Assembly: GCA_019636695.1 (NCBI GenBank)
Contig: JAHBXD010000002.1
Location: 558,001 to 622,000 of the forward strand
Length of the DNA stretch: 64,000 nt
Direction: 5' to 3'
Source: Phycisphaeraceae bacterium
GTDB taxonomy: Bacteria > Planctomycetota > Phycisphaerae > Phycisphaerales > UBA1924
In this document: positions 30,167 to 43,724 of the stretch, piece after piece
Position numbering within the stretch: the stretch's first letter is position 1
Layout: each line of letters begins with the position of its first letter
Translations under genes and position numbers: made by a program
The notes under the pieces: model-generated
Told to the model about the DNA's origin: nothing
The model's database searches: none
The model's input: only the letters and a program-made list of their open reading frames with translations

Positions 30167-30568
30167 TCACCCCGTCACCACCAGCGGGTCGGCCGCGCCA
30201 TCGGGCGATACGGCCAGAAACACCAGGTGCTCAACCGCCCCCGAAGTGCGCCCGACCTGGTACGTCACCCGCTCCACCACCGCCGTCGCCGAACACCGCC
30301 GCCGAAGACCGTCAGAGGCGTTCGGCCCGACATGCCACGTCAACAGCGCTTGCATGCCCGGACGCGGCGTGTGCAGCGCATCCCGCGCGAGCGTCCGCGC
30401 CAGCCTGATCGTCGTGCGCACTTCGGGCACGTCGGCATAGGTCGGGTGCGCGCCATGATCTGTCCACTCGGCGATGGTCCGCTCCGGTGTGCGCTCGACG
30501 GCGATCGAATGCACGTTCGTCAGTTCCAGTTCGCCGAAGGTCACCCGCTCAGGATTGACCACAAGCAT
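30167..30568 (-). CDS. Phage-like protein, probable tail-tube or stopper
   Basis: A 133-residue protein, mainly beta with one helix (EVRTTIRLARTLARDAL). It starts MLVVNPERVTFGELELTNVHSIAVERTPE; the pattern of a short N-terminal hairpin then a strand containing VERTPE is like tail-tube-fold proteins, but the assignment is weak. AAGGAGG lies 5 nt before the chosen ATG; an upstream ATG overlaps the preceding stop as ATGA and would add five residues. Confidence 0.5.
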   Translation of the reverse strand: MLVVNPERVTFGELELTNVHSIAVERTPERTIAEWTDHGAHPTYADVPEVRTTIRLARTLARDALHTPRPGMQALLTWHVGPNASDGLRRRCSATAVVERVTYQVGRTSGAVEHLVFLAVSPDGAADPLVVTG

Positions 30569-30579
30569 CGTCGCCTCCT

Positions 30580-31185
30580 TCATGCGCGAACCAGCACCCC
30601 GGCGCCCGCGCGCCTGGTCGCCTCCGGCTTGCCGTCGCCGTCAAGATCAAGATGCACCTCAGCCCGCGCGCGCAGCATGCCGTACCGCGACCGGTAATAC
30701 CCGAGTCGCGCTTCGCCCGGTGAACCCGGGGGCGACAACGCCGCCGCCGCCCCGTGAATCAGCAGGAGCGCGCCGACGGCGATCAATTCATCCAGATCAC
30801 CCGGATTCGTGACACCAGACATGTCCGAGAGTCCGAACAACCCGAGCACCTGTTTTTTTGCCAGCCCCAACTGCGGCCCGAACGTCGTCACTCCTACGGC
30901 CAGGCCCGTCCCCGAGGCGGGCGGGTGGGGCGGGTCGGTTGCATCGCTCCGCACGAGCGAGATGACCGCCTCGGTCGGCGATTCGATCGACACGATCTCG
31001 CAATACGTTGTCTGCACCACGATGACACACCCGGGCGAAACACCCGAAAAGGTCAACCCGGCCGTCGTCAGCGTCAGCAGCGCGCCGGTCAGCGACGCCT
31101 CACCCACCAGCAGGCGCTGACCGAGCCAAAGCACGTCTCGAAACAGCGTCGGCTCCAGCACAAGAAGATCACGATCAGCAGGCAT
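30580..31185 (-). CDS. Phage-like protein downstream of the capsid gene, probable head-tail connector
   Basis: A 201-residue protein starting MPADRDLLVLEPTLFRDVLW. It contains a beta-rich middle (LTFSGVSPGCVIVVQTTYCEIVSIES, split here by description) and a helical C-terminal half ending in RAEVHLDLDGDGKPEATRR, in which DLDGDGKPE looks like a calcium-binding loop. Position directly after the capsid gene is where head completion or connector proteins are encoded. GGAGG is 6 nt before this ATG. The frame stays open far upstream through an 8-nt tandem repeat, but that part is not protein-like. Confidence 0.5.
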   Translation of the reverse strand: MPADRDLLVLEPTLFRDVLWLGQRLLVGEASLTGALLTLTTAGLTFSGVSPGCVIVVQTTYCEIVSIESPTEAVISLVRSDATDPPHPPASGTGLAVGVTTFGPQLGLAKKQVLGLFGLSDMSGVTNPGDLDELIAVGALLLIHGAAAALSPPGSPGEARLGYYRSRYGMLRARAEVHLDLDGDGKPEATRRAGAGVLVRA

Positions 31186-31300
31186 CTTCATCCTCCAGAC
31201 TGCACGGCACGGGCCGGAAAGCCCGGGCAGGGGCCGCCGCCCCTTGACCCGGACACGCACGCGGGAGTCCCCCGATCCCCGCGAATGGAACACACTTCGT

Positions 31301-31364
31301 CTCTCCGTCTCTCCGTCTCTCCGTCTCTCCGTCTCTCCGTCTCTCCGTCTCTCCGTCTCTCCGT
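31301..31364. repeat. 8-nt microsatellite, eight perfect copies
   Basis: The unit CTCTCCGT is repeated exactly eight times (64 nt) between the capsid stop and the next gene. On the transcribed strand the unit reads ACGGAGAG, a purine-rich run containing GGAG. The unit length is not a multiple of three. Such tracts change length readily by slipped-strand mispairing. Confidence 0.95.
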
Positions 31365-31382
31365 CTCTTCTCCCCCCCCCAA

Positions 31383-32389
31383 TCACACCGCAAGACCGGT
31401 CAGACGCGCGTGGGCGTTTTCGTTGCGGCATTCCACCGTGTATTCCCCCACGATCTGCCCGCGCACCGCGTCACCCGTCGAGGCCAGCGGCTTGAACTGG
31501 AACGACCGCCCCTGCAAAGGCAGCACCTCGATCCGCGATGAATCCAGCAGCAGCATCGCATCCGGCGGCACCCAGCGCGACAGAATGATCGAGCACACGC
31601 CGAAATCGCTCTCGTACACGCTCACCAAGTCGCGCACGCGGTCATCGTCGGGGGCGTACGACCGCGACGAACTCACGAAGGCGTTGATCCGACGCTTCTG
31701 CGCACCGCCGACCACGATCGTGTCGATCCGCGCGTTCGATTGCTCCCACACCGCCCGCAGGGCCGCGTTCAGCACCGCCTCGTTCAGTTCGTTGTTGCCC
31801 GCCCCGCCCCCGGGCGGAATCGGCCCGGTGTTCGGCGTAAAACGGTTCGTGCTGATCGTGTGCATCAGCCCGTGCATCGTGCGGCGGACGGTCGCCGACC
31901 CCTCGGGCGTGGCGGCCGGGGCGATGCCGTTGATGACGCAGTTCTCAAGATCTCGCAGCAGTTCGCGCAGACGCTCCTGCTTCTGATAATCCAATTCGTC
32001 GCGCACGCCGTAGCCCGGCACGCTCTGCATGCTGCCGCTCACCTCGACCGACGCCGTCAGAATCTGGGTGAAATTGCGCTTCCGCGCCCGGTTGGTGAAA
32101 CGCACCGCCGGCGCATCGGCCCCTTCGAGCGCGGCATTGCCCAGAATATGCAGCACCATGTTGTTCGCCAGGGCGAAGGGTGTCGACCCGCCGTAGGCGC
32201 GGACCACCGTCAGCACGTTGCCCGCGACGTTGGTCACCAACATCACCTCGGTCGAGGTTCCCGGGCGCACGAGGTCGCCGATGCGGAAGTGCCCGCCGTT
32301 GGCGACCGTGATGCTCGTTGCCGCCAGAGGACCGGGGGTGAACACCGTCTGGTTCACCTGGTCGGTGTTGGGCAAAAGCGTGTCCTCGA
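31383..32389 (-). pseudogene. SU10/DUF5309 major capsid protein, C-terminal part (interrupted)
   Basis: The last 334 codons of the major capsid gene. Reading starts in the shared core (GAG GAC ACG CTT TTG) as ED-TLLPNTDQVNQTVFTPGPL and continues through NGGHFRIGDLVRPGTSTEVMLV, QILTASVEVSGSMQ and a typical SU10-fold C-terminus with YTVECRNENAHARLTGL. The motif after the junction matches the position after HEW-xx-D in DUF5309 proteins. Upstream of the core the frame runs into element DNA and ends at a TAG at 32451-32453, so this part has no start of its own. Joined to 42902-43068 it gives an uninterrupted 389-residue protein. Confidence 0.88.
32382..32389. other. Left attachment junction (att core)
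   Basis: GTCCTCGA marks the left boundary between capsid DNA and the element; the bases TCGA (32386-32389) are shared with the right junction GTCTTCGA. To the left lies capsid coding sequence, to the right the true 3-prime end of the recombinase gene. Confidence 0.85.
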
Positions 32390-32454
32390 AGCTTCCCCGT
32401 CTGAACGCGATCCAGTTCCGCTGGCTTGGCGGCCAGATCGAGGAAGCGGTCTAA
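32390..32454 (+). other. Detached 3' end of the serine recombinase gene
   Basis: Twenty-one codons plus TAA reading KLPRLNAIQFRWLGGQIEEAV. They are in the same frame relative to the TCGA core as the recombinase at 41150-42904, so in the circular form the protein ends here, giving 606 residues. In the integrated state these codons are separated from the gene body by the whole element. Confidence 0.8.
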
Positions 32455-32639
32455 CGTCGGCGCGTTTTCCCGACGGCGTTTGGCGCTCCCGCCAGACGCG
32501 ATTCCAGGCGGCGACGCTGGCAACAGGCGGCCCAAGAAGCCGCGCGTCCGCGACCACCGGGGCCTCCGCGAGTTCCTGTTCCGCTGAGGCACCGCAGGCG
32601 TCGTTGATGCCGTCCATCGTAATGGGCAGCGACACTCTG

Positions 32640-32954
32640 CTATCCAGCAGCGATCGCCGCGCTTGTTCCCACGGCAAGAAGGAATGTACCTACTCCGCTG
32701 AGCGACAAATACAAGCGTCGGTTCAGTCGCTCATGCGGCGTATCTCCACCCCAAGTCGCGATCTCCTCGTGCATCTCCGCCAGTATGGACCAGAGCAGCA
32801 GAAACCCGCCCGGAATCTGCGCCCACTGCACTGGGCGCGCGGGCACATATTGAACGAGGACAATCCCGACGACAACGCCGAATGCAATCGTGAGCCCGGC
32901 AAACATGCCGCATCTGCCGTACCTGCGCAAAACCCTCCTTGTCTCGTCCGACAT
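32640..32954 (-). CDS. Three-helix membrane protein, cargo gene
   Basis: A 104-residue protein with hydrophobic segments at about residues 16-35 (GMFAGLTIAFGVVVGIVLV), 46-60 and 83-103, and a polar loop HEEIATWGGDTPHERLNRR between the last two. No family recognised. It follows the HEPN gene by 37 bp on the same strand and is the closest cargo gene to the left element end, so it is likely the third gene of the protease-HEPN transcript. A membrane effector or anchor role is inference. Confidence 0.6.
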   Translation of the reverse strand: MSDETRRVLRRYGRCGMFAGLTIAFGVVVGIVLVQYVPARPVQWAQIPGGFLLLWSILAEMHEEIATWGGDTPHERLNRRLYLSLSGVGTFLLAVGTSAAIAAG

Positions 32955-32991
32955 CGGCTATCTCCGAGCGCTGAGCTGATTCTCGCGACAG

Positions 32992-33711
32992 CTACTTTAC
33001 AACAGGGAATTCGGGTCCAAAGCATCCGGCCCGATCGAACACTTCTCGAACCAGTGCTGTTAGGTCCTTGATGATACTCTCGCAAAAGCAATGCTCGATC
33101 ACAACGGCTCCGACATCATCGGGGTCGACCATGTTATCAGTTGTGCTGAGCAGGCGGACACCAGCATCGCGCTGTAGTAGTTGACGCAGATTCGGTTCTT
33201 CGGCTGGATCATCCTTCGGCACGCCATGACGGTGCACAAGGCAATGCCTCAACTCGCGCAGCTCGTCCACTTGCTTCCAGCGGTGGTCATCCCACCATAC
33301 CAAGCCTGCGCTCGTCCACGTCTTCTGGAACTCAGCTACAAGTGTCTTGGCGTGCTTTCCTGAAAGCGAGCAGTTGCAAGAACGGCGAGATGCGATTTCG
33401 CGGGCAATTCGCGTCAGATTCGACTCGATCAGTGTGAAGCATAGCACCACGATCGCATACCGCAGAAGCCGTGAGAATGTGACGCCATATTGCCAATCAC
33501 ATTGGTCGATCTCGGCCCAATGCTCCGACAGGATTCCCTGGACTTCCTGCTCACTCGAGTTGGGTGGAACGCTCACGCCTCTGCTGGCGATCTCGCTCCG
33601 CAAAGTGTGATGCCCTTCCTGCAACTGCGCTTCGCTGTAGTGGTGGAAGTCCCTGAGCGCGCGGAACTGCCCCATCACATGGGCGCGGACGAAGTCCCAG
33701 TTAATGTGCAC
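32992..33711 (-). CDS. HEPN-domain protein (candidate ribonuclease)
   Basis: A 239-residue helical protein with the sequence VDELRELRHCLVHRHGV near residue 155, which matches the HEPN Rx4-6H catalytic motif (Arg155, His160, followed by Arg161). HEPN domains with this motif are RNases in toxin, CRISPR and abortive-infection systems, though some are catalytically silent. Residues 85-105 form a hydrophobic helix (FSRLLRYAIVVLCFTLIE) that could pack in the bundle. The start is GTG overlapping the stop of the upstream protease gene (TAGTG), so the two are translationally coupled. A short TTG-initiated extension is possible but less likely. Confidence 0.7.
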   Translation of the reverse strand: MHINWDFVRAHVMGQFRALRDFHHYSEAQLQEGHHTLRSEIASRGVSVPPNSSEQEVQGILSEHWAEIDQCDWQYGVTFSRLLRYAIVVLCFTLIESNLTRIAREIASRRSCNCSLSGKHAKTLVAEFQKTWTSAGLVWWDDHRWKQVDELRELRHCLVHRHGVPKDDPAEEPNLRQLLQRDAGVRLLSTTDNMVDPDDVGAVVIEHCFCESIIKDLTALVREVFDRAGCFGPEFPVVK

Positions 33712-35540
33712 TACTTCGCCCCTTGGAGCAAGAACACCGCCGTAGGTGTATCGGACCAAGTGATTCTGTACAGGGGCTCAAGGGGAGCCAGCCGCTGAAT
33801 CCCCTTGATGGGCTTCACTTGCTTTGTTCCCTTCGACGGCTTTGGCTTCGTTGGAATCGCCAGTCGCCGAGCCGTAGCTCCCACGATTCCGCCACGGTGA
33901 TCATGCAGCGCACCGTCAACAAACCATCCGAGATGAGCGCCGGTGAAGCCATAGACGCTCTTGCCATCGAGGTATGCAACGGGCTTTCCCGACCACAGGT
34001 AGATCGTTAGGTCATCAGACACGCCGATGTAGGCGCTTGCGACGCCGCCTCTGTCGAAGATGTTGAGGTCGTCCTCTTCAAGTCTCTTAACAAAGATGCT
34101 GTTGGCCACCCCCTCGACAAACATCTTGTAGGCACCCTGCGTCTTAACGATCATGACTTTCGGCCGGTACGCATAGTGGTAGGTGTAGGAGTAGCTCACC
34201 TGCTGCCAGACTTGCCCATTGTCAAGTGCGAACAGCGTATCGCCATCCCAGCCTTCGAACTCGCTAATGATGTGCGATTCAATCAGATCGGGACCATCGC
34301 CGGCCGGGGCGATCTTTGCTGCGGCCTCGGCCAGTTGTGTCTCCAGCCTTTTCAGTTCTGCGTCCGCGTTTTCGAGCGACGATGGATTGGTGTCTCTGGC
34401 CGTCGCTGTCCGAGCACGATCGGCATCATCCTTCCGTTCCGGCAGCCTGGGACTCGGCTGGGCAGCGCTTCGCTCGTCAACAGGCTCGTCAGGGTTTACG
34501 ATGTCGAAGTACAGGATGCGAAACTCGACTCGGTTCTTCGGAGTGCGTGGCGGAACATTTCGGACAGGCGTGTTCAGCTTTTCCGTACTTTCGTGCACTG
34601 ACCCCGTGGCACGTCGAGCCAGCCCTGCTGGCACCACATCGTTGAATGTAACTACAGCAACATCTAAGGGCGATCCCTTGTCGTCATAGAACACGACAAG
34701 ACAGACAATACTCTTCACTGGGTCGCGAAGTTTGTTGCGGAAGGAAAGCGAAAAAGCGCCTGTACCTGAATGGCTGTCCCACGTGAGAGTGCCACCTTCA
34801 ACCCCTTCGGTGCTTCTCCCGCCCATCTCATCGAGGATCGACTTCTCCTTCTTCGCCCTCCTCGCTTTGGCCGCAGTCGGCAAATCCACGGGAGCCTTGA
34901 TGGCCGGGATCAGCGCTGAGAGGTATGCGCTCGGGATGGCGAAGTTGAGGTTCTGCCCTCCCTTGAATGTCGCTACAGCTAGGCCGATCACTTCCCCCTT
35001 GCTGTTGAGCACGGGACCGCCGCTGCTGCCGGGCGAGACCGGAGCGGTGATTTGGAGAAGCGAGTCGTCGCCGACCTTGCGGACGCTGCTGACGATCCCG
35101 GCTGAGAAAGTGCCCTCAAGGCCGCGTGGGTTACCGACCGCATAGATCGTGTCACCTGCGGCCACACCCTCGCTGTCGCCGATGATCAGGGCATCGGCTT
35201 TGAGACCGTCGACGGACAATAGCACCAGGTCGCGTGCGTGGTCAGACGCCACAATTCCCCGGATGTCGTTCTTGGTCTTGTCATCGGTGAGCTTCGCGTA
35301 GCCACGCGCTGCGCCTTCGATCACATGCATGTTGGTGGCGACGATGCCCTCGCGCACGACGAACCCACTGCCCATCGCAAGCGGCTGGCCGTTGGCGTCC
35401 TCCATCACGAGGAGCACCACCGATGGCGATACCCGCTTGGCGATCTCGCGCGGGGTGTCAGGTACCGCCGACGCTGAGACCAAACTGGCTAGGCACGCTG
35501 CCGCAACGGCGCGCCCTAGGGACCACAATGGCGTGCTCAT
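33711..35540 (-). CDS. Exported HtrA-like trypsin-fold serine protease with extra domains
   Basis: A 609-residue protein. Residues 1-25 are a signal peptide (LGRAVAAACLASLVSASA). The trypsin-like domain covers about residues 33-225: the triad is His in ATNMHVIEG, Asp in HARDLVLLSV and Ser in SPGSSGGPVLN, as in HtrA/DegP, but there is no PDZ domain. A second beta domain around residues 270-360 (SIVCLVVFYDDKGSPLDVAV, RVEFRILYFDIV) resembles FxLYD. A charged coiled-coil (LKRLETQLAEAAAKIA) then leads to a C-terminal beta-rich domain of about 190 residues with no recognised family. ATG chosen for its AGGGAGA ribosome site and signal peptide. It shares an operon with the HEPN gene and has lower GC than the host. 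Confidence 0.85.
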   Translation of the reverse strand: MSTPLWSLGRAVAAACLASLVSASAVPDTPREIAKRVSPSVVLLVMEDANGQPLAMGSGFVVREGIVATNMHVIEGAARGYAKLTDDKTKNDIRGIVASDHARDLVLLSVDGLKADALIIGDSEGVAAGDTIYAVGNPRGLEGTFSAGIVSSVRKVGDDSLLQITAPVSPGSSGGPVLNSKGEVIGLAVATFKGGQNLNFAIPSAYLSALIPAIKAPVDLPTAAKARRAKKEKSILDEMGGRSTEGVEGGTLTWDSHSGTGAFSLSFRNKLRDPVKSIVCLVVFYDDKGSPLDVAVVTFNDVVPAGLARRATGSVHESTEKLNTPVRNVPPRTPKNRVEFRILYFDIVNPDEPVDERSAAQPSPRLPERKDDADRARTATARDTNPSSLENADAELKRLETQLAEAAAKIAPAGDGPDLIESHIISEFEGWDGDTLFALDNGQVWQQVSYSYTYHYAYRPKVMIVKTQGAYKMFVEGVANSIFVKRLEEDDLNIFDRGGVASAYIGVSDDLTIYLWSGKPVAYLDGKSVYGFTGAHLGWFVDGALHDHRGGIVGATARRLAIPTKPKPSKGTKQVKPIKGIQRLAPLEPLYRITWSDTPTAVFLLQGAK

Positions 35541-36205
35541 GGGTCTCCCTTTCAATGTGCAGGACACGGCTACCTCGTCAGCCGGATGGGGAACGAATCA
35601 CGAACGACGCGATTATAGCAATGGCCACGATGCTGCGAGGGACAACGGCAAGGGGCAGCGATATCCACGGCAGGCAGGTAGCGCTGGCTGTCGCCGTCAT
35701 CTCTGCGGCAGGTACGTCTGTCAGAGTGATTCTCTGTCCGGACGAGATCTGATCGCAGTTTGATTCAGGTCGCCACGCCGCCATGAGCCGCGATGTCCAC
35801 CCGTGGCCCGATCTGCCGCTGTCGTCGGCGAATCTCCGTTTTTGCGCGCAACTCTCGACCTCGAGCGCGTAGATATCTAGTAGGGGACCATTTGGTCGCC
35901 GGCTCCCGGACTTCCGGGCTCGTGCGACAAAACGCGGCCTCCGGCAGATATAGAGGTCATGGAAGAGATTTTCACACTTTTCCGGACAACCGCCCCTTCC
36001 ACGGCATAGGAGAAGTATAGGGGCACATCACATGAGCAGGTCCATCGGTGGACCAATCTGCATGAACTTCCGACTCCTTCCCGGATTGGCCCTATCTCGT
36101 GTCGGTACCGGTGAAGGCAGCATGTTTCCGTTTGACCGCGGCGTAGCGGGCAGGCGGACGAATTGAGCGCCACGAGGGCGCAGAACCCGCAGCAAGGAGG
36201 CTGAC
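35541..36205. other. Divergent intergenic region of the element
   Basis: About 665 bp between the minus-strand cargo operon and the plus-strand capsid operon. It contains the extended -10 promoter for the protease gene and, close to the right end, AAGGAGG before the 36206 gene. Several short open frames occur but none has convincing composition. GC is lower than in flanking host DNA. It is the natural place for regulatory sites controlling both operons. Confidence 0.5.
35612..35620 (-). promoter_or_regulatory. Extended -10 promoter of the protease operon
   Basis: On the minus strand TGCTATAAT is a perfect TGnTATAAT extended -10 box. It lies about 72 bp upstream of the protease ATG, predicting a start near 35605. 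No good -35 at 17 bp spacing is seen, which extended -10 promoters do not need. Confidence 0.55.
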
Positions 36206-36607
36206 ATGACGGTGTCACCATTCATCATGACGCGCGAGCAGTACGAAGGCCGCTGCCGCGATCAGTTGAAACAGGCCTATTCCGGCGATTCTGCCAGCGC
36301 GGAGGCAGATTTCCATCGCCTGTACCCCAAGAGCACCGAGGGTGCGGCTCAGGAACTGCGCGAGCGTGGCCTCGCTGCCTATGCAGAGAACATGTCGCAC
36401 TATGCGCACAATCTCGGCATCGCCCTGCGCATGATTGGGCGCAACATCGTCTGGTACCGCGAAGACATCGATGCAATTGCGGAGTACCTGGAGCACATCA
36501 ACCGGTGGACGCATGGAGCGAAGTGGCGGCGCGCCCGCGCCATGACGGTTGAGGACGAATTGCAGATCGAGACGATTCTGGCGGAGCGGAAGGCGGCGAG
36601 CCAATGA
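36206..36607 (+). CDS. Small protein preceding the element capsid gene, unknown
   Basis: A 133-residue soluble helical protein beginning MTVSPFIMTREQYEGRCRDQ. Helical segments such as AAQELRERGLAAYAENMSHYAHNLGIALRMI dominate and no membrane segment or known motif is visible. A strong AAGGAGG site lies 4 nt before ATG. Its stop overlaps the start of the protease/capsid fusion gene (ATGA), so it is produced together with the capsid protein and may be a head-assembly or packaging helper; that is inference from position. Confidence 0.7.
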   Translation: MTVSPFIMTREQYEGRCRDQLKQAYSGDSASAEADFHRLYPKSTEGAAQELRERGLAAYAENMSHYAHNLGIALRMIGRNIVWYREDIDAIAEYLEHINRWTHGAKWRRARAMTVEDELQIETILAERKAASQ

Positions 36608-38490
36608 CCACTGCCGTCGAGAACATCCTCCTCGCAGCGACTGAAGTCGCCATCGAAGCGTCTGACGGTGGTGCGAAGCGACCGCAAATCAGCATAATCG
36701 CATACTCCGGTGGCGTGATGCGCGTGCCCGGTTGGGGCGATGTGGCGCTCGACCTCGATGGCTTGGATGCCGCGGGACAGATTCCGTTGCTGGCGGACCA
36801 CGACGCCCGTGTCGGCGGCGTGGTGGGCCACGGCGAGGCGGCGGTACGGGACGGTCGGCTGATAGTGGCAGGCGTCATGTCGGGTGCTGGTCCCGCTGCA
36901 CAGCAGATCGTTGAGATGTCAAAGGGCGGCTTCGCGTTTCAGGCGTCGGTTGGCGTCGAACCAGCGGAACACGAACCGGTTCGCGCCGGCGAGCCGGCGG
37001 AAGTCAATGGCCGCACGCTCGTCTCGCAGCGCGGGTTCACGCTCGTGCGGCGCGGCAGATTGAGAGAAGTCAGCATCACGCCGCTTGGCGCGGACGCAGG
37101 AACGTCCGTAGCCATCGCGGCATCACGAACCAAGGAGCGGATTCAGATGAACACGGAAGTTCAGAACATCGACGAGGCAGCGATTCGCGCGAGGGAACGC
37201 GATCGCCTCAAACAGATCGAAGCAGTTTGCGCTGCACCGAACGGCGGATGGGGCGCAGCGAGTTCGCGCGTGGAGGAACTGAAGGCATCTGCCATTGCTG
37301 GCGAGATCACGCCGCAGGACCTCTCCGCGCAGCTGCTCAACATCCTGCGCGAGTCGCGGCCCAAGGTCGCCTCGCCCTGGCAGCCGCAACCGGTCGGCGG
37401 CGTGGCGACACTCGAAGCAGCGCTGCTGTCGCGGCTCGGGCTCACAGCGCTCGGCGAGAAGACGCTCGGAGCTGTGGCGATGGAGCATGGCGAGCGCTTC
37501 AAGGCGACACACGCGCTCGACATCTGCCGCGCGGCTCTCATGCTCGACGGCCAAGATGTGCCGCACGGCCGCGAGGAGATGGTGCGCGCCGCATTGTCCA
37601 CCTACTCGCTTCCGACGGCGCTGGGGAACCTCGCCAACAAGCTGCTGCTCGACGCATACGAGGAATCTCCCGCGACATGGCGCGCCTTCTGCTCGGTGCG
37701 GTCCGTGGCGGACTTCAAGCCGAACACTGCGATTCGGCCATCGTTCACCGGCCAATTGGAGCAGCTTGCACCAGGCGGCGAGATCAAGCATGGGCAGGTG
37801 AGCGAGTGGTACACACAGTTCCAAATCGACACGTTCGCCAAGATGCTCAGCGTCGATCGCCGCGACATCGTGAACGATGACCTCGGCGTGTTCGAGGATG
37901 CGTCTCGCGCGTACGGGCGCATGGCAATGCGGCGTCTGAGCGATCTGGTGTACCAGGTGTTGCTGGCGAACGAAGGCGGGTTCTTCAGCGCGGCGAACAA
38001 CAACCTGATCATCGGTGCCGACGCCGCGCTTGGAATCGACTCGCTTGCCAAGGCGATCGCGTTCATGCTCACTCAGCGCGATGACGAAGGCAATGATCTC
38101 GACATTCGCCCCAAGACGCTGCTCGTGCCACCAGAGCTTCAACCGGCGGCGAAGGCCGTGCTGGAGAGCGAGTTCATTCAGCAGATCGCCGAGAAACAGC
38201 CGACCGGCAACAGCATGCGCCGAGTGGTCTCTCCTGAGGTCGAGCCGCGCCTGAGCAACAGCCTCAAATTCGGCGCTGCGGCGAGCACCAAGCACTGGTA
38301 CCTCTTCGCCAGTCCGAGCAACGTCCCGATGGTGGTCGGCTTCCTCAATGGCAAGCAGACGACGACCGTCGAGTTCTTCGGCTTGGACCAGCAGGTGAAC
38401 CGCTTGGCCGTGAGCTGGCGGGTGTATCACGATTTCGGTGCTGCGTTCGTCGACCCGCGCGCCGCGGTGCGGTCCAAGGGCGAAGCGTAA
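36604..38490 (+). CDS. Prohead protease / major capsid protein fusion
   Basis: A 628-residue fusion. Residues 25-170 match a prohead serine protease: LLADHDARVGGVVGH holds the probable His66, and GGFAFQASVGVEP the probable Ser115, with a following strand REVSITPLG. Residues 185-270 are a charged helical linker resembling a scaffold/delta domain. Residues 275-620 match an HK97-fold capsid subunit of the Mu gpT-like type (YSLPTALGNLANKLLLDAYEE, FKPNTAIRPSF, VDRRDIVNDDLGVFEDASRAYGRMA, PKTLLVPPELQPAAKAVLES, and a C-terminal YHDFGAAFVDPRAA). The fusion would self-process during head maturation. An internal ATG with its own SD at 37147 may yield capsid protein alone. It overlaps the upstream gene by 4 nt. 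Confidence 0.88.
   Translation: MTTAVENILLAATEVAIEASDGGAKRPQISIIAYSGGVMRVPGWGDVALDLDGLDAAGQIPLLADHDARVGGVVGHGEAAVRDGRLIVAGVMSGAGPAAQQIVEMSKGGFAFQASVGVEPAEHEPVRAGEPAEVNGRTLVSQRGFTLVRRGRLREVSITPLGADAGTSVAIAASRTKERIQMNTEVQNIDEAAIRARERDRLKQIEAVCAAPNGGWGAASSRVEELKASAIAGEITPQDLSAQLLNILRESRPKVASPWQPQPVGGVATLEAALLSRLGLTALGEKTLGAVAMEHGERFKATHALDICRAALMLDGQDVPHGREEMVRAALSTYSLPTALGNLANKLLLDAYEESPATWRAFCSVRSVADFKPNTAIRPSFTGQLEQLAPGGEIKHGQVSEWYTQFQIDTFAKMLSVDRRDIVNDDLGVFEDASRAYGRMAMRRLSDLVYQVLLANEGGFFSAANNNLIIGADAALGIDSLAKAIAFMLTQRDDEGNDLDIRPKTLLVPPELQPAAKAVLESEFIQQIAEKQPTGNSMRRVVSPEVEPRLSNSLKFGAAASTKHWYLFASPSNVPMVVGFLNGKQTTTVEFFGLDQQVNRLAVSWRVYHDFGAAFVDPRAAVRSKGEA
37132..37149 (+). promoter_or_regulatory. 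Internal ribosome site and start in the fusion gene
   Basis: AAGGAG at 37132-37137 precedes an in-frame ATG (37147) by 9 nt, at the boundary between protease and linker/capsid parts (codon 182). Translation from here would give a 447-residue scaffold-plus-capsid protein without protease. Confidence 0.4.
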
Positions 38491-38609
38491 CACGGTGCGG
38501 AGCGGCGGGCTGGCGTTCGTCGTCCTGCGCTGGCCCGCCGCCCGCTTTCGAGGAATGTGAAGTGCGCCAAGCCGCATGGAGTGCGGCTGCGCGATGACTA
38601 CGGAGGCAG

Positions 38610-38795
38610 ATGGCCACGGACACGGTCGAAATGGACGCGATGGATCGCGTCGGGAGCATCCGGATGCACATCGCCTTCGCTGAACCGACGGCGGACAGCG
38701 AAACGCGATGGGCATCGCGCGTCGATGCGCTCGCGGCCTGGCTGGCCGCGGAATGGGACCGCGAACAAGCCGATCGCGCGCGGGAGCGGCAATGA
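38610..38795 (+). CDS. Small protein, unknown, upstream of RepA-like ATPase
   Basis: A 61-residue, acidic, probably helical protein (MATDTVEMDAMDRVGSIRM...) with GGAGG 4 nt before ATG. Its TGA overlaps the ATG of the next gene (ATGA), which strongly supports both starts. Possible roles include a small regulator or partner of the ATPase; no family is recognised. Confidence 0.6.
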   Translation: MATDTVEMDAMDRVGSIRMHIAFAEPTADSETRWASRVDALAAWLAAEWDREQADRARERQ

Positions 38796-40384
38796 CTCAT
38801 GGTGAAGCGCAATCCTGGATCGTCGACGTGCACGGCGAGCGCTTCGCCCGGTGGTATGACGACGGTCCGCCAGCATGGCCACTCAGTGATCAGGAGCGGA
38901 GCGAAGTTGAAAGTGCGTACCGATCCGTGTTCGTCACCGCTGCACGAGCAATCGCCAAATGGACTCGTCCCGACGTGGATGCTGTTGAGGATGCGTGGCG
39001 CGCGCGGATCAAAGCACGCGACGCCGCATCCATCCACGTTCCATCAGCCGACTACTTTGGCGTCGTCGATGCCGAGAAGCGATCTGAATTCACCGGCCAC
39101 CAGTTCGTCTATCGCCTCGGCCACGCAACGGAGGCGGCGCGCTGTCGCGGCCATCATCAAGCGCTCGCCAGCGCCGCAGATGATTGGCAATGGCTCAGCG
39201 AGCGCGGCGTCCCGGCAGAGCGCATCGCGGCATCCATCGCGCCGGCGTGGCTCAAACAGGTCGAATCATGGAGCCGCGCACCGATCGAGCCGCAACGCAT
39301 CACTGTCCCGCCGAGGCTTGCTGAGGCCATGAGCAACACAGAGCCAGCCTCCTTCCTGAGCGTCGACGATCTCGTCACGGCGCACCCTGATCTGCGCCCG
39401 CCCGTCATCCACGGCCTGCTCAGAGAGGGCGAAACGATGAACGTCATTGCACCGCCAAAGACAGGGAAATCGTGGCTCGTCCTCGACCTAGCGATCGCCG
39501 TCGCCACTGGCCGACCCTGGCTTGGTCGGTTTGAAACGAATCGCGGCGATGTTTTACTCATCGACAATGAGCTCCACCCTGAAACGACCGCGAACCGCAT
39601 TCCGAAGGTTGCGCGCGCGCGAGACGTACCGTTCGATCAGATTGCGCGGACGTTTTACGTGGCCAACCTTCGTGGCGGGCTGCAGGACCTCGTTTCGCTC
39701 GGGCCATACTTTGATTCGCTCCAGCCCGGACGCTTCCGCGTCATTGTGCTGGACGCCTGGTACCGGTTCATGCCGGCTGACACCGACGAGAATGACAACG
39801 GCACGATGGCGTCGCTTTACAACCGCCTCGATCACCATGCATCGCGGCTTGGCTGCTGCTTCGTGCTGATCCATCACGCGACGAAGGGCAGCCAAGCGGC
39901 GAAATCCATAACGGATGTGGGTGCCGGCGCTGGCGCACAGAGCCGCGCCACCGACACACACCTTGTTCTGCGTCAGCATGAGGAAGACGATGTGATCGTG
40001 CTCGACGCGGCGGTGCGATCGTGGCCGCCAATCGATCCGGTGTGCCTGCGCCACTGTTTCCCCGTCTGGAATGTTGATGAATCGCTCGATTCGGCGTCGT
40101 TGCGGCGGGAGCATTCACGGCGGAGAACACATGTAGAGAAGCCGGTGAAGGCCAAACCCGAGCCGTGGACGCCGGGGCGCTTCGTGAGGACGTTCGTGAC
40201 TGGCACCCCTCAGCTGCGCGATGAAATCCTGCTTGCCGCCGAAGACGACGTCTCCAACGCGAAGGCGAAGCAGCTTCTCAAGGTCGCCGAGTCGCAGGGA
40301 TTGGTCCACCGCTGGCAACGCGACTACAGCGACCGGGTGCGCTTCTCGACCGAGCCACCGCCCATCACAGAGGTGGGGCCGTGA
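38792..40384 (+). CDS. RepA-like AAA family ATPase (replication/helicase type)
   Basis: A 530-residue protein. The N-terminal 185 residues are helical and charged. From about residue 186 comes a RecA/RepA-fold ATPase (AAA_25 type): Walker A is APPKTGKSW (about 220-228, Ala in place of the first Gly), Walker B is RVIVLDAWYRF (about 325-335), and the sensor segment CCFVLIHHATKG follows. The C-terminal 110 residues carry a basic linker and a winged-helix-like end (LRDEILLAAEDDVSNAKAKQLLKVAESQGLV). Related proteins in phages, plasmids and satellites load or act as replicative helicases. Directly downstream is a hairpin-rich tract that could be its origin. Start is set by the ATGA overlap. Confidence 0.85.
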   Translation: MTHGEAQSWIVDVHGERFARWYDDGPPAWPLSDQERSEVESAYRSVFVTAARAIAKWTRPDVDAVEDAWRARIKARDAASIHVPSADYFGVVDAEKRSEFTGHQFVYRLGHATEAARCRGHHQALASAADDWQWLSERGVPAERIAASIAPAWLKQVESWSRAPIEPQRITVPPRLAEAMSNTEPASFLSVDDLVTAHPDLRPPVIHGLLREGETMNVIAPPKTGKSWLVLDLAIAVATGRPWLGRFETNRGDVLLIDNELHPETTANRIPKVARARDVPFDQIARTFYVANLRGGLQDLVSLGPYFDSLQPGRFRVIVLDAWYRFMPADTDENDNGTMASLYNRLDHHASRLGCCFVLIHHATKGSQAAKSITDVGAGAGAQSRATDTHLVLRQHEEDDVIVLDAAVRSWPPIDPVCLRHCFPVWNVDESLDSASLRREHSRRRTHVEKPVKAKPEPWTPGRFVRTFVTGTPQLRDEILLAAEDDVSNAKAKQLLKVAESQGLVHRWQRDYSDRVRFSTEPPPITEVGP

Positions 40385-40471
40385 GGGGGGAGGGGGTATG
40401 CGCGCTCCCCCCGTACCCCCCAGTGCCGCCGAGGCGGCCTGGGGGCGGGGACGGGCGCGTACACCGCCCCC
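40385..40471. other. Hairpin-rich GC tract, candidate origin or packaging site
   Basis: Three inverted repeats in 87 bp right after the RepA-like gene: GGGGGGAG/CTCCCCCC (40385-40412), GCCGCC-GA-GGCGGC (40425-40438) and GGGGGCGG/CCGCCCCC (40441-40471). There is no T-run, so they are not ordinary terminators. The position after a replication gene is typical for an origin. Confidence 0.4.
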
Positions 40472-40587
40472 TCCCGCCACCGGACGCCTCGTAGGTACTT
40501 GGCGGCGAGCGGCCCGCCGGCTAGGCCCGCGGGAACAGCCACGGGTATAGACAGACTTTCTTTTGCCTGTCCGGATTTTGAGGCCGA

Positions 40588-40613
40588 GAGAAAACGCCGG
40601 CACATGGCCGGCG
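40588..40613 (-). terminator. Rho-independent terminator after the HARE-HTH gene
   Basis: Minus-strand hairpin CGCCGGC-CATGT-GCCGGCG followed by TTTTCTC, 25 bp after the stop of the 40638 gene. Confidence 0.75.
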
Positions 40614-40637
40614 TGGCGAGGAGATGCGCAGGTGAAA

Positions 40638-40946
40638 TCAACCGTTGGCGGCAAACATCCCGCGCTCGACCTTCTTGAAGCGGGCATCCTTTTTCTTCGC
40701 CGCGATCTCCCGGATGATGGCGGCGTAGACGGTGGCATGCGGCGTCTTGCCGCCGCTGCTCCAGTAGCCCTTGGCGATGGCGGTGTCGACGATCTCCTTG
40801 CACCGCATCGGCTTGCCGGCGTCTGTCAACACCTTGGCCGCCGCGTCGAGACCGCTCATGCGGCCGTTGGCCGCCGCCTTCGACGGCTTCGCCTTCCGTG
40901 CGCCCTTCGCCTTCGCGTTCGCCTTCTTCGTGTTTCGCTTCGACAT
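40638..40946 (-). CDS. HARE-HTH (HB1/ASXL) domain protein
   Basis: A 102-residue protein: a Lys/Ala-rich basic tail (residues 1-28, [20 protein letters not shown]) followed by the winged HARE-HTH domain (about 30-100) with the characteristic [31 protein letters not shown] and [23 protein letters not shown] domains bind DNA and are found in RNA polymerase delta, restriction endonucleases and chromatin factors. Basic-tail versions are frequent in planctomycete elements. It is divergent from the recombinase gene (about 200 bp between starts), which makes it a candidate regulator of integration/excision. Confidence 0.85.
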
Positions 40947-41149
40947 GGTCTGTCTCCTGCTACGATGTTCATCTTCGCCCAGGCACGCGCCCGGCGCGGC
41001 TCGTCATGCGAGCGCCCAGTCAGTTACCTCAACGGGCGGGTGAATCAAGGCCGCCCGGCAGTTGCCCACAATCGCCCCGAAACAGCGCTTGAGGCGTTCG
41101 CCACGTTGAGGGAGGGTGTCGGGCGGCCCAGTTGGCCAGAAAGGAAACG
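40947..41149. promoter_or_regulatory. Divergent promoter region between HARE-HTH and recombinase genes
   Basis: A 203-bp gap with genes pointing away on both sides. GCAGGAGACAG precedes the HARE-HTH start and AAGGAA precedes the recombinase start. No clear -10/-35 pair could be picked with confidence. Confidence 0.4.
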
Positions 41150-43096
41150 ATGATCATGAGACAGAACGGAACGGCAGCGGTGGGTTACGCCCGTCGCTCA
41201 ACGGACATGCAGGAACGGTCGATTCCCGACCAGCAGGAGTATGTGGAGCGCTGGGCGCGGCAGAATGGGTACCGCGTCATCCGCTGGTACGTTGATGATG
41301 CGATCAGCGGGACCAGCGCGAAGGGGCGAGCGCAGTTCGAGCGCTTGATGCACGATGCGGAGAACGGCCGCGACTTCGAAGCGGTGCTCTGCTACGACAT
41401 GTCGCGGTTCAGTCGCGGCGGTACCAACGAGACCGGCTACTACCTGCACCGCTTGAGCATGGCCGGCGTGCAGGCGCTGTTTTGCGCCGACGGCATTCCC
41501 GATGGTGAAGAAGGCGAACTGCTTCAGGGCGTCAAGTCGTGGCAGGCGAGGCAGTACAGCGTGAAGCTGTCCCGCGACTGCATTCGCGGCCAGCATTCAA
41601 CGGTTACCGTGCGACGAAGCGGCATGGGCGGCCGGGCTCCATACGGCTACGACCGCCAGTACGTTTCCGCCGAGGGCAAAGTGATTCGAACCGTGCGCAC
41701 GTTGCCCGATGGTCGGCGGCAGGAGTTCGGCCCCGACGGGAAGCACGTTCGCTTCATCGACGCCTGCCAGCCCATGGGCCGGAAGATGAAGTCTGACATC
41801 GTGCGGCTCGTGCCTGGCGATCCGCAGCAGGTGAAGGCGGTGCGCATGATGTTCGACTTGTGCGCGAAGGGATACGGATTCCGCTCGATCGTCATCGCTT
41901 TGAACGATCGCGGCATTTCGGGGCCGATGCGTTCTCGCTGGAACCAGATGGCGGTCAAGACCATCCTGCAGAACCCGTGCTACTACGGCGCGCTCGTTTG
42001 GAATCGCCGCACGTTCGGGAAGATTCATGGCGTGTCGCCAGATGGCACCGCTCGAACGAAGCGCCCAGGCGAAAGCACTCGCAACCCGCGGGACCGGTGG
42101 ATCATCATTGAGGACGTGCACGAGCCGCTCGTCTCGCGTGCCACATTCGACGCAGCGCAGGAGGCGATGGCGAAGCGACGAAATGCAGGTGGGTTGGCGC
42201 GTCCGACGCAGCGATACCTGCTGTCGGGCCTCCTGAAATGCACGAACTGCGGCTACAACTTCTGGGGCTGCATCGTGAAGAACGGCAGCGACGTGGGCGT
42301 GCGTTACTACGTCGATGCCGGATACCGCGCGCAGGGTATCAAGGTGTGCCGTTCAACCAGCATCTCCGTGGATGCGCTCGACTCGTGGGTTCTGACGCGC
42401 GTGCGCGAGTTGCTCCCCGCGGACGCCAAGGGGCGGGAGGCGGCGGTCAAGCAGTTCGTGAAGGCGATGTCTCAACGGCGCACCAGCGGTGCCGATTCGA
42501 GATCGCGCGATGACGAACTCGCGTCGGTAACCAAACGCATCAAGGCCCTGGCGGCGCTGCTCGCGGATGAGGACGTGTCGGACATCAAAGAACTCCGCGA
42601 CGAACTGGTCGCGCTGAAACGCCGACGAACCATGCTTGAAGCCGAGGCTGCGAAGGATGCGGAGGACAAGATTGGCCGCGTCGACATGGCCGACCTCCGA
42701 ACATGGGCCGAGGCCAAGTTGAATGAGTTGACGAACACCATTGGCAACGGCGGTACAATGCATGAGATGCGGCAGGTGGTTCACGCTCTAGTGGACCGCA
42801 TTGATATCGACCCGCACGCGAAGAGGGGTGTGTTGTATTTGCCCGCCGACGCGCAGGCCCTTCTCGAAGCAGCCGCCACCAGTCGAGTAAGAGTTCCGTC
42901 TTCGATCCACTCGTGCACCGTGCCCATCGCGGCCCGCTTGGGGTCGCCGAGGTGGTCGAGCAGAGGGGTCTCGTGCGGCGAGACGATGGAGACGAGATCA
43001 GCGACATCCTCGATCAGTTCAGGAAGCGTCGCGCCCGCGGAGTACGTGGCTTTTCCGGTAAACGGCATGTATCAATCTCCAGAAGTTCGAAGGTGA
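41150..43096 (+). CDS. Large serine recombinase (integrase), C-terminus replaced on integration
   Basis: In the integrated state the frame gives 648 residues. The resolvase domain (1-145) has the catalytic serine in VGYARRSTDMQERSIPDQQ, then DAISGTSAKGRAQFERLM and YDMSRFSRGG. The recombinase domain (about 170-310) contains GGRAPYGYDR and GYGFRSIVIALNDRGI; the zinc ribbon is CTNCGYNFWGC...C (about 365-395), followed by a coiled-coil (about 445-545). The last 63 residues are read through the right junction into antisense capsid DNA. In the circular form it would end 21 residues after the core, at 606 residues. ATG at MIMRQNGTA has AAGGAA 3-9 nt upstream. Confidence 0.92.
   Translation: MIMRQNGTAAVGYARRSTDMQERSIPDQQEYVERWARQNGYRVIRWYVDDAISGTSAKGRAQFERLMHDAENGRDFEAVLCYDMSRFSRGGTNETGYYLHRLSMAGVQALFCADGIPDGEEGELLQGVKSWQARQYSVKLSRDCIRGQHSTVTVRRSGMGGRAPYGYDRQYVSAEGKVIRTVRTLPDGRRQEFGPDGKHVRFIDACQPMGRKMKSDIVRLVPGDPQQVKAVRMMFDLCAKGYGFRSIVIALNDRGISGPMRSRWNQMAVKTILQNPCYYGALVWNRRTFGKIHGVSPDGTARTKRPGESTRNPRDRWIIIEDVHEPLVSRATFDAAQEAMAKRRNAGGLARPTQRYLLSGLLKCTNCGYNFWGCIVKNGSDVGVRYYVDAGYRAQGIKVCRSTSISVDALDSWVLTRVRELLPADAKGREAAVKQFVKAMSQRRTSGADSRSRDDELASVTKRIKALAALLADEDVSDIKELRDELVALKRRRTMLEAEAAKDAEDKIGRVDMADLRTWAEAKLNELTNTIGNGGTMHEMRQVVHALVDRIDIDPHAKRGVLYLPADAQALLEAAATSRVRVPSSIHSCTVPIAARLGSPRWSSRGVSCGETMETRSATSSISSGSVAPAEYVAFPVNGMYQSPEVRR
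42898..42905. other. Right attachment junction (att core)
   Basis: GTCTTCGA marks the right boundary between recombinase coding sequence of the element and the N-terminal part of the capsid gene. TCGA (42902-42905) is shared with 32386-32389; the only difference in the 8-nt window is T versus C at position four. Confidence 0.85.
42902..43068 (-). pseudogene. SU10/DUF5309 major capsid protein, N-terminal part (interrupted)
   Basis: The first 55 codons of the capsid gene, ATG start with GGAG upstream. The sequence MPFTGKATYSAGATLPELIE, then VSIVSPHETPLLDHLGDPKR and GTVHEWI, is the characteristic N-terminus of SU10-type major capsid proteins (SPxETP and HEW blocks). After the core the frame continues into the antisense of the recombinase gene (about 40 meaningless residues) and stops at 42781. 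So no functional capsid protein can be made from this locus while the element is integrated. Confidence 0.9.
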
Positions 43097-43182: not shown

Positions 43183-43668
43183 TCAAGCGCCGCGCCGGGC
43201 ACGCAGATACCGAAGCAGGATGCGTCGATCGCCGCTGGCGCGGGCCTGCTCGCGCAGATGATCGACGCCGTCGCCCGAACGGAAGAACGGCAGACTGGTC
43301 GCACCCGGCATGGACGCAAAGAGCGCCGGCGAACGCTCGCGCAGTTCGGCGACGGCGACCGCCGGAGGCGCATCGGCCAGCGCCTGTTCAACATGCCCGA
43401 GCGCTTCGGCGAGGTCGATCGCATCGGCCTGGTGGAGCAGAATCGCCGCATCAAGCCTGCGCTGCGCGCGGTCGAGTTCAGCGCGGGTTGCCTCGCGCTC
43501 GTTCTCGGCGAGAGCAAGCGCCGCGCGTGCTTCGGCGAGGCGGCGCTCGAGTTCGAGCACCTCGGCGCGGCACGTGTGATCGGACGGCGCGGGACGAATC
43601 GGCGTATCGGGCGTATCCGGGGAAATTTCGCCTCCGTCGGGCGCACCATCGGGTGGAAGTTCGGGCAT
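43183..43668 (-). CDS. Scaffold-like phage head protein
   Basis: A 161-residue protein with a Pro/Asp-rich N-terminus (about 1-30), then a long coiled-coil (about 35-105, VLELERRLAEARAALALAENEREATRAELDRA region) and a C-terminal segment ending in a basic stretch LLRYLRARRGA. A coiled-coil protein with a basic tail between portal and capsid genes is the usual layout of a scaffolding protein. AAGGAG is 7 nt before the ATG. It starts 57 bp after the portal stop. Confidence 0.65.
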   Translation of the reverse strand: MPELPPDGAPDGGEISPDTPDTPIRPAPSDHTCRAEVLELERRLAEARAALALAENEREATRAELDRAQRRLDAAILLHQADAIDLAEALGHVEQALADAPPAVAVAELRERSPALFASMPGATSLPFFRSGDGVDHLREQARASGDRRILLRYLRARRGA

Positions 43669-43724
43669 GGGGTTGCTCCTTGTCGGGTGGATGTGTTGCG
43701 AACCGGTCGCCTCGCGCGAGGCGA

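What the first reader, a model, noticed from the sequence alone, without database searches (positions are those of the whole stretch)
31383..43068. A 10.5-kb serine-recombinase element is inserted inside a phage major capsid gene
The SU10/DUF5309 capsid gene is cut after codon 55. The left part resumes in the same reading frame after a shared TCGA core (32386-32389 vs 42902-42905). Joining 43068-42902 to 32385-31383 gives one open frame of 389 residues passing through HEWIED-TLLPNTDQ, as expected for the family. This gives the exact insertion site, attL/attR and attB. Large serine recombinases integrating into a virion gene of another element is uncommon; known cases of gene-splitting excision (comK, nifD, sigK) suggest that excision could restore capsid synthesis on a signal.
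Basis: partly seen in the sequence, partly recalled or inferred. Interest (0 to 1): 0.95.

Follow-up and report, generated by a model that had tools for sequence, protein, structure and literature searches.

The report
Satellite splitting a domesticated capsid gene
In this planctomycete genome a 10.5-kb mobile element sits inside one codon of a phage-type capsid gene that most relatives with the gene keep whole, and related elements break the same codon in 14 other genomes; it likely moves with a serine recombinase whose own gene would be completed only when the element circularises, and its departure would restore the capsid gene.

Summary
An SU10-type capsid gene is split in frame by a 10.5-kb element with a large serine recombinase (LSR), an AAA/primase-like protein, its own capsid-protease fusion and variable cargo. 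The insertion recurs: 15 genomes, this one included, are broken at that codon (one rearranged). Five of the integrases are 93-97% identical although their hosts' capsids are only 60-80% identical. The attP predicted for that sister branch is assembled in a congener with a whole capsid gene. The LSR frame runs through attP: its last ~22 codons lie at the element's far end, with F.W kept in 16 of 16 ends, so integration exchanges the integrase tail. Public LSR proteins form clades fused to capsid antisense, tail-tube or methylase sequence. The target belongs to a head-tail cluster (capsid in 106 of 150 genomes) that co-occurs with a terminase and tracks rpoB: likely domesticated and GTA-like, unproven. 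Closest precedent: helper-embedded PICIs (tyrosine integrases). Excision of this copy, particles, helper and any signal are untested. Verdict: real, recurrent, new variant of a known kind.

The parts
32385..42900 (.). the integrated element (10,516 bp, counting the 2-bp core once)
   Evidence: break at the same codon in relatives; order LSR-HARE-AAA-capsid/protease-cargo shared with other elements
42898..43068 (-). capsid gene, 5' part, codons 1-57; codon 57 (GAC) carries the core
   Evidence: PF17236; aligns to residues 1-60 of the whole G001 capsid; no stop
31383..32384 (-). capsid gene, 3' part, codons 57-389 and stop
   Evidence: PF17236 E 4e-73; residues 56-389 of the G001 capsid
42899..42900 (.). 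crossover dinucleotide (TC on +, GA in capsid orientation) at the LSR-side junction
   Evidence: comparison of junctions; register agrees with the attP in G001:C69
32383..32384 (.). crossover dinucleotide at the far junction
42879..42898 (.). attP half-arm at the LSR end (ccagtcgagtaagagttccg)
   Evidence: sits where the other elements have the arm GCGCTCGTNTCCCGTCTGAC
32385..32405 (.). attP half-arm at the far end (rc TTCAGACGGGGAAGCTTCGAG)
   Evidence: sits where the other elements have GTCAGACGGGTAAGCAGTGTG
41150..42900 (+). large serine recombinase (Resolvase, Recombinase, Zn ribbon), element-encoded body; start chosen at an ATG of the ORF 41132-43096
   Evidence: Pfam, phrog_95 integrase E 1.6e-90
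42901..43096 (+). antisense-capsid tail that the integrated LSR frame acquires (65 aa counted from the core codon)
   Evidence: ORF 41132-43096; tail read
32385..32454 (+). native LSR C-terminus (SSKLPRLNAIQFRWLGGQIEEAV, stop), which would be joined to the LSR only in the circle
   Evidence: F and W kept in 16 of 16 element ends; the sister-branch tail is read through attP in L297; protein P0009 ends with such a tail
40638..40946 (-). small basic HARE-HTH protein beside the LSR; candidate directionality factor or regulator (inferred)
   Evidence: PF05066; in 8 further elements with that stretch sequenced plus L154; same strand as the LSR in L149-L153, L078, L087 and L124, opposite strand here and in L154
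38708..40384 (+). AAA_25 protein, primase/helicase-like (predicted replication)
   Evidence: PF13481, phrog_2597 DNA primase E 1e-37
36604..38490 (+). prohead protease-major capsid fusion carried by the element
   Evidence: phrog_4523 E 1e-71; NF045541 at 276.5 bits, below its cut-off of 525
36206..36607 (+). 133-aa protein upstream of the capsid fusion
   Evidence: no Pfam or PHROG match; 32-44% matches in 6 of 25 related loci, none in the capsid-inserted elements
33711..35567 (-). cargo: trypsin-like peptidase with 4-fold beta flower domain
   Evidence: PF13365, PF21784; PADLOC RT-Protease_XI match limited to the protease part, E 2e-18
32992..33759 (-). cargo: 255-aa protein, unknown
   Evidence: no match
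32640..32954 (-). cargo: 104-aa protein, unknown
   Evidence: no Pfam match
43725..45194 (-). host cluster: portal protein
   Evidence: PF05133 E 3.5e-15, phrog_104
43183..43728 (-). host cluster: 181-aa protein between portal and capsid (scaffold-like by position only)
   Evidence: no family match; relatives in the same place in L153 and L156, and of the G001 counterpart in 56 loci
30580..31431 (-). host cluster: 283-aa ORF, head-tail joining by position only
   Evidence: relatives in the same place; no family match
30167..30583 (-). host cluster: predicted tail tube / tail terminator fold
   Evidence: AF2 pLDDT 91.7; Foldseek PDB best E 2.3e-4, TM 0.55, rmsd 5.9
29740..30150 (-). host cluster: predicted distal tail / baseplate hub fold

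Best explanation
A 10.5-kb element with a large serine recombinase splits a conserved SU10-type capsid gene at codon 57, and it likely enters and leaves by recombination at a GA dinucleotide there, which would restore the capsid frame. SHOWN: the same codon is broken in 15 genomes; the integrase body ends at the core and a conserved continuation of its frame (~22 codons) lies at the far end of the element; an attP of a sister branch, with the predicted register, is assembled in a congener. INFERRED: in the circle the full-length integrase (native tail) recombines attP with the capsid attB; integration then replaces that tail by residues read from the antisense strand of the capsid gene, so the integrated enzyme differs from the one that integrated, which may bias or lock direction. 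No terminase, portal or tail gene was seen in the element, but it carries a capsid-protease fusion and a primase-like protein, so it is likely a satellite of tailed phages of the capsid-protease-fusion type, with an R-M or other defence gene as passenger. The host cluster (portal, capsid, tail-like proteins, separate terminase) is likely a domesticated, GTA-like particle system. While the element sits there no whole capsid can be made, which would spare the element from particle-producing lysis and from being replaced by imported DNA.
For: Same break: 10 of the 106 genomes with a PF17236 match (of 150) and 11 of 80 kept named loci, 6 of them genomes already counted. Mobility: five integrases 93-97% identical in pairs, their hosts' capsid parts 60-80%, one host in another GTDB family; pS 0.18-0.35 for the LSR against 0.40-0.50 for the capsid, LSR pN 0.014-0.042. 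attP: 1 of 400 order genomes at up to 3 mismatches, reversed-pattern control 0, with the LSR frame reading through it. Tail: F12 and W14 16 of 16, G18 14 of 16; differences by codon position 0.47/0.41/0.60 inside, 0.69/0.70/0.71 beyond; protein P0009 ends with such a tail. Targets: 27 of 120 listed LSR proteins have capsid-antisense tails; 26 of them plus the window lie in one clade of 29 rows, support 91. Content; R-M cargo. Host cluster: capsid 106 of 150, terminase 118 of 150; both 101, capsid only 5, terminase only 17, neither 27, Fisher p 1.5e-13; Mantel against rpoB r 0.61 (29 genomes) and 0.67 (22); capsid dN/dS 0.04-0.33 in six intact pairs.
Against: No empty site or attP in this genome; exact attP pattern 0 in viral contigs. 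The G001 attP contig could be a tandem junction, belongs to another branch than the window's, and G001 has LSR-end junctions at two non-capsid sites. The wider family is not confined to this site: of 20 further stretches with a related capsid fusion only L194 shows a capsid piece. Some copies decay: L151 has a broken capsid-protease gene and L154 is rearranged; the capsid part of L087 has one stop. Tails of L149 and L157 show no stop within 40 codons. Purifying selection seen on split capsids may mostly predate insertion. No helper was demonstrated. GTA: no particle evidence; genes flanking the cluster in G001 found relatives in at most 5 of the other loci held, so its place is not fixed; capsid or terminase is undetected in some genomes, and three terminase matches (G114, G123, G129) are weak.
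Confidence: 0.7

Rival explanations
1. Helper-embedded satellite proper: the interrupted cluster is itself the helper. Excision on induction turns on the capsid gene late, and the element is packaged by the cluster's own terminase and portal.
For: Direct analogy with HE-PICIs, where the capsid gene is the commonest site (PMC10111431). A sister element sits in the tail-tube gene of a phage that has its own capsid-protease gene.
Against: The element's capsid belongs to another family (capsid-protease fusion) than the SU10 capsid it interrupts. No integration or replication gene was found beside the target cluster among the ORFs scanned, and its terminase lies on another contig here.
Confidence: 0.2
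2. Plain gene inactivation: the site is a conserved DNA sequence, nothing is restored, and the capsid cluster decays after insertion.
For: Rearranged or damaged copies exist (L154, L151); a stop in the capsid part of L087; G023 keeps only the capsid C-terminal end.
Against: The first 57 codons are open in all 10 split genomes and the rest is open in the 9 that are not rearranged; LSR under strong selection; an attP form exists.
Confidence: 0.2
3. Developmentally programmed excision as in skin/sigK or SPbeta/spsM: the cell needs the capsid at one stage and excises the element on cue.
For: Same enzyme class and in-frame restoration; spsM, kamA and sigK precedents (PMC6957869).
Against: Only 10 of 106 genomes carry the insertion, so it is no fixed part of a programme; no regulatory link seen.
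Confidence: 0.06
4. Assembly chimera or mis-binning produced the split gene.
For: Some MAGs do seem to hold foreign pieces: the capsid end of contig G112:C204 matches that of G115.
Against: The window's contig is 684,669 bp with both junctions inside; the split is also in the single-contig genomes G036 and G115.
Confidence: 0.01

Closest known systems
Helper-embedded PICIs (HE-PICI; PMC10111431: abstract, passages and section 19 read)
   Same: A satellite with primase and often a capsid gene, integrated inside a phage late gene, most often the capsid gene; one integrase clade repeatedly targeting late genes
   Different: [quoted passage not shown] here a serine recombinase, opposite orientation, planctomycetes, a conserved capsid gene that looks non-prophage, and an integrase frame whose end lies beyond attP
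Gene-splitting LSR elements SPbeta (spsM), phi3T (kamA), skin (sigK) (PMC6957869: passages read)
   Same: LSR, splitting of a gene, restoration on excision
   Different: Their targets are cellular genes reconstituted during sporulation; here the target is a virion-type gene, the element is satellite-sized and recurs across genera
Integration-dependent immunity of mycobacteriophage BPs (PMC4557955: start of abstract in a search listing; that attP lies inside the repressor gene is recalled)
   Same: attP lies inside a phage coding gene, so integration changes that protein
   Different: There it is the repressor gene; here it is the integrase's own 3' end
SSV-type archaeal integrases (recalled; PMC4158269 seen only as a listing)
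   Same: The integrase gene is divided by integration
   Different: Tyrosine recombinase cut into two large parts; here a serine recombinase exchanging only a short C-terminal tail
MGE insertion into competence genes, e.g. comYC, comEC (PMC12637031: passages read)
   Same: An element disables a host DNA-exchange route that could cure it
   Different: Here the disabled gene would belong to a GTA-like particle system (inferred), not to transformation
Gene transfer agents (e.g. RcGTA; recalled, and search listings)
   Same: Conserved phage-derived head-tail genes without integration or replication genes beside them, terminase present
   Different: No particle, packaging or transfer evidence; SU10-type capsid; terminase at a separate place

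Membership tests
Large serine recombinase (LSR) element | Resolvase + Recombinase + zinc-ribbon domains | tested here: met
   three Pfam models over their cut-offs
Large serine recombinase (LSR) element | 2-bp core between inverted half-sites, no long repeat at the ends | tested here: met
   GA core, arms GTCAGACGGG / CCCGTCTGAC in the sister branch; attP assembled in G001; arms of the window copy less symmetric
Large serine recombinase (LSR) element | Recombination of attP and attB by the enzyme | not testable with these tools
   needs an assay
Helper-embedded PICI | Integrated inside a phage late gene | tested here: met
   capsid gene; sister element in a tail-tube gene
Helper-embedded PICI | Tyrosine integrase of the HE-PICI clade | tested here: not met
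   serine recombinase; the paper states tyrosine integrases only
Helper-embedded PICI | AlpA gene beside the integrase | tested here: inconclusive
   the small neighbour is HARE-HTH; no targeted AlpA search made
Helper-embedded PICI | Element and late gene co-oriented | tested here: not met
   LSR is + and the capsid gene is -
Phage satellite in general | Integrase and replication gene, no complete virion or packaging set | tested here: met
   8 element ORFs scanned with Pfam, 4 of them with PHROGs: no terminase, portal or tail match
Phage satellite in general | Mobilised by a helper phage | not testable with these tools
   candidate helper type in own genome, L226/L227, untested
Gene transfer agent (host cluster) | Conserved, largely vertical inheritance across a clade | tested here: met
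   106 of 150; Mantel r 0.61 against rpoB, p 1e-4, 29 genomes taken mostly from the best capsid matches
Gene transfer agent (host cluster) | Head, terminase and tail genes kept in the lineage | tested here: met
   portal, capsid, tail-like folds, terminase co-occurrence
Gene transfer agent (host cluster) | Particles that package random host DNA and transfer it | not testable with these tools
   needs culture

The most novel reading that the evidence does not exclude
A lineage of satellites is specialised in switching off an order-wide gene transfer agent of Phycisphaerales: it inserts in one codon of the GTA capsid gene, brings its own capsid and a restriction or other defence system, and is governed by a serine integrase whose C-terminus is written by the junction itself (native in the circle, capsid-antisense when integrated), a built-in direction switch.
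Probability: 0.33. Interest if true: 0.95.

Novelty: new variant of a known kind. Interest (0 to 1): 0.86.

Why it matters
It would be a serine-integrase counterpart of helper-embedded satellites, aimed at a capsid gene that much of a bacterial order has kept, and so a testable case of conflict between mobile elements and a GTA-like system. It also offers a family of integrases with one conserved target codon and a natural tail swap at attP, useful for studying how LSR direction is controlled.

Tried and rejected
TCGA as core: rejected by the junctions of other elements. Exact attP pattern in viral contigs: none. attP of this element in its own genome: none. An early reading of contig G112:C204 (L194) as an excised form was dropped: its capsid end matches that of G115, so it is likely mis-binned. 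dN/dS for L078/L087 first came out at 1.17 through a threading error and is 0.22 after correction. mis-set the frame of some tails; only searches are used. A regex missed the P0009 tail, which is plain in its listing and was caught; the methylase regex missed look-alikes (P0081, P0105, P0108). The genome tally of 150 includes G000; the script counted 149 plus a phantom, corrected. Partial capsid matches (G023, G045, G077, G105, G147) were dropped from the count of split genomes. Paper searches for a Phycisphaerales GTA or capsid cluster, for GTA conflict, for serine-recombinase satellites in capsid genes and for integrases split by attP listed no description of this system, as far as titles, abstract starts and the passages I opened show; most listed papers were not read, and subscription papers are mostly not held, so this is no proof of absence.
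Full report
1. What is there. The window is G000:C2:558001-622000 of a 3.1-Mb assembly; 78 of the 80 named loci with a relative of its capsid gene are titled Phycisphaerales or other Planctomycetota, the other two Leptolyngbya and Cyanobacteria. PF17236 (SU10_MCP) hits twice, model 11-52 at w42886-43038 and 47-292 at w31389-32387, both on the minus strand. Against the whole 389-residue capsid of the same-genus genome G001 the two pieces are residues 1-60 and 56-389, without stops. The pieces add up to 57 + 332 = 389 codons.

2. The exact junction. In most other interrupted genomes the N side reads GAGGA then TGCGCTCGTNTCCCGTCTGAC, and the C side reads GTCAGACGGGTAAGCAGTGTGGA then the capsid (L150, L152 and L154 vary by a few bases). 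The dyad formed by the two element arms is centred on GA, the first two bases of Asp-57, which both sides and the intact genes share. The window fits this register: arms w32385-32405 and w42879-42898, core w32383-32384 and w42899-42900.

3. It recurs. Of 150 genomes (G000 included), 106 have a PF17236 match; 10 of these (G000, G003, G005, G018, G036, G057, G069, G086, G101, G115) are broken at this codon. G005, G057 and G069 have the two parts on different contigs; G101 has its N part ending there but is rearranged by an inversion. Partial matches (G023, G045, G077, G105, G147) were not counted, which leaves 91 with one continuous match, one of them (G100) with a TAG inside. Together 15 genomes; for the 5 added ones only the C side was seen. 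In one search, 98 rows were intact, some genomes appearing twice.

4. The elements are mobile. Integrases of L149, L151, L152, L153 and L160 are 93-97% identical in pairs, while the capsids of those hosts are 60-80% identical; L152 is from another GTDB family (for L160 the capsid row is L159). Synonymous differences are 0.18-0.35 for the LSR and 0.40-0.50 for the capsid, and LSR pN is 0.014-0.042, so the integrase is under strong selection and likely arrived after the hosts parted. The window's copy is a separate branch (63-65% to the others); its nearest public protein is P0012, 96%, which also has a capsid-antisense tail. The wider family is not confined to this site: of 20 further stretches holding a related capsid fusion only L194 shows a capsid piece.

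5. Gene content. Order from the capsid N side: LSR, HARE-HTH protein, AAA_25/primase-like protein, capsid-protease fusion, variable zone. Eight element ORFs were scanned with Pfam and four of them with PHROGs; no terminase, portal or tail gene was found. In seven of eight other elements scanned, the variable zone holds DNA methyltransferase genes, with restriction enzymes in L150 and L151: type I methylase-specificity fusion (L149), SacI-like enzyme plus methylase (L150), type II methylase plus enzyme (L151), methylases (L152, L153, L087, L124); the one L154 ORF scanned had no match. In the window it holds a trypsin-like/beta-flower protein and two unknown proteins. This is the layout of a phage satellite with a defence passenger (inference).

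6. The integrase gene is completed across attP. In the circle the LSR frame would run over the core into the far end of the element. That far end encodes a tail with F at position 12 and W at 14 in 16 of 16 ends examined and G at 18 in 14 of 16; the third codon position varies most within codons 8-21 (0.47/0.41/0.60) and no such pattern is seen further on (0.69/0.70/0.71). The 16 ends are related and not independent; in L149 and L157 no stop follows within 40 codons. F12 to G18 lie outside the 44-bp dyad, so binding of the integrase to DNA alone is an unlikely cause. In the integrated state the frame instead reads 18-84 residues of capsid antisense (10 loci). Two natural sequences show the joined form: contig G001:C69, found with the attP pattern predicted for the sister branch (1 of 400 order genomes, one mismatch, reversed-pattern control 0), where the frame reads VRRDTSA-SKLLTRLKPRAFKWGTDGVQSA-stop; and protein P0009. 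G001 has a whole capsid gene. The contig may come from a circle or from a tandem array; either needs a formed attP. G001 also carries two LSR-end junctions outside the capsid gene; one flank, GCGCACGGGTGGCTCGGCGA, resembles the capsid attB.

7. A clade that targets late genes. Of 180 LSR relatives that passed the cut among the 7,995 candidates scored, 120 were listed. By my regexes 27 of the 120 carry the capsid-antisense tail, 7 are fused to a tail-tube C-terminus, 13 to a methylase C-terminus, 1 has the native tail, 22 end in a KGEA-like motif of unknown meaning and 50 are unclassified. In a quick ML tree of 118 of these plus the window (two short rows dropped) the capsid-type rows fall in one clade of 29 rows (support 91) that also holds P0009 and one unclassified row; the tail-tube rows fall in one clade of 8 (support 100, one unclassified), the methylase rows in one of 25 (support 100, 12 unclassified). 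The tail-tube case is seen in DNA: in IMG/VR contig L144 the tail-tube gene is split into residues 1-80 and 73-143 around a relative element (capsid fusion 74%, LSR 51%), inside a phage with its own capsid-protease gene; that element's far end also encodes an F.W tail.

8. The target cluster. Portal, a small protein, capsid, a 283-aa ORF, a tail-tube-like and a distal-tail-like protein lie between a CTP_transf_like gene (coaD by recall) and cellular-looking genes, with no integrase or replication gene among the neighbours scanned. A terminase large subunit (phrog_2) lies on another contig here and is found in 118 of 150 genomes, three of the matches weak. Capsid and terminase together: 101; capsid only 5; terminase only 17; neither 27 (odds ratio 32, p 1.5e-13, not corrected for shared ancestry; tables, test). 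Distances follow rpoB: capsid r 0.61 (29 genomes), terminase r 0.67 (22), each p 1e-4 (genomes taken mostly from the best capsid matches). Capsid dN/dS is 0.04-0.33 in six intact pairs, 0.22-0.34 in three split pairs and 0.16-0.31 in three mixed pairs; since insertions look recent this does not prove selection after insertion, and the capsid part of L087 has one stop. Against a fixed locus: flanking genes of the G001 cluster found relatives in at most 5 of the other loci held, while cluster genes found many. The capsid is undetected in 44 of 150. GTA-like is the best reading, not a proven one.

9. Mechanism and likelihood. I hold it very likely (about 0.9) that an LSR element integrates at this codon with the GA core, likely (0.75) that the integrase tail swap is real biology, likely (0.65) that the element is a satellite, and somewhat more likely than not (0.55) that the cluster is a GTA-like system whose production the element blocks. 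Regulated excision of this copy is open.

10. Known and new. Satellites inside prophage capsid genes are known as HE-PICIs, with tyrosine integrases; LSR elements that split genes are known; integration-dependent change of a phage protein is known for repressors (listing; details recalled). What I did not find in print, in the searches named in Tried and rejected, is the combination: serine integrase, conserved capsid gene of a planctomycete order, and the integrase's own end beyond attP.

Noticed in passing
G000:C1:293739-295232 and upstream (L177:9737-14297): The separate terminase gene follows a 291-aa gene, an ABC/AAA ATPase and a sigma-70 region-4 protein, with a divergent HTH + Peptidase_S24 repressor: a possible control locus of the particle system.
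   Followed up: partly
G000:C1, L226:14086-17554 and L227:702-5489: A second phage-like cluster in the same genome with portal, capsid-protease fusion (40% to the element's over 391 residues), tail tube and tape measure; a candidate helper type.
   Followed up: partly
public proteins P0071, P0086, P0091, P0099 and others: A clade of related serine recombinases is fused at the C-terminus to the end of a DNA methylase (PF01555 in several), suggesting a further split target gene.
   Followed up: no
public proteins ending in KGEA-like motifs (22 of 120): Many related LSRs share a C-terminal HGDxRGxxKxKGEA-like motif whose meaning (native tail or another target) is unknown.
   Followed up: no
L228:4060-4126, L229:287-357 (G001): LSR-end junctions at two non-capsid sites; one flank resembles the capsid attB, so the enzyme may use pseudo-sites.
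   Followed up: partly
L154 (G101): The capsid cluster is broken by an inversion next to the element and a second LSR end lies downstream.
   Followed up: no
window 31300-31370: A run of TCTCCGTC-like tandem units just before the capsid stop in + coordinates, in the 5' part of the 283-aa ORF.
   Followed up: no
L194 (G112:C204): An element contig ending at the att core on one side, with a capsid end like that of G115 on the other; likely mis-binned in this MAG.
   Followed up: partly
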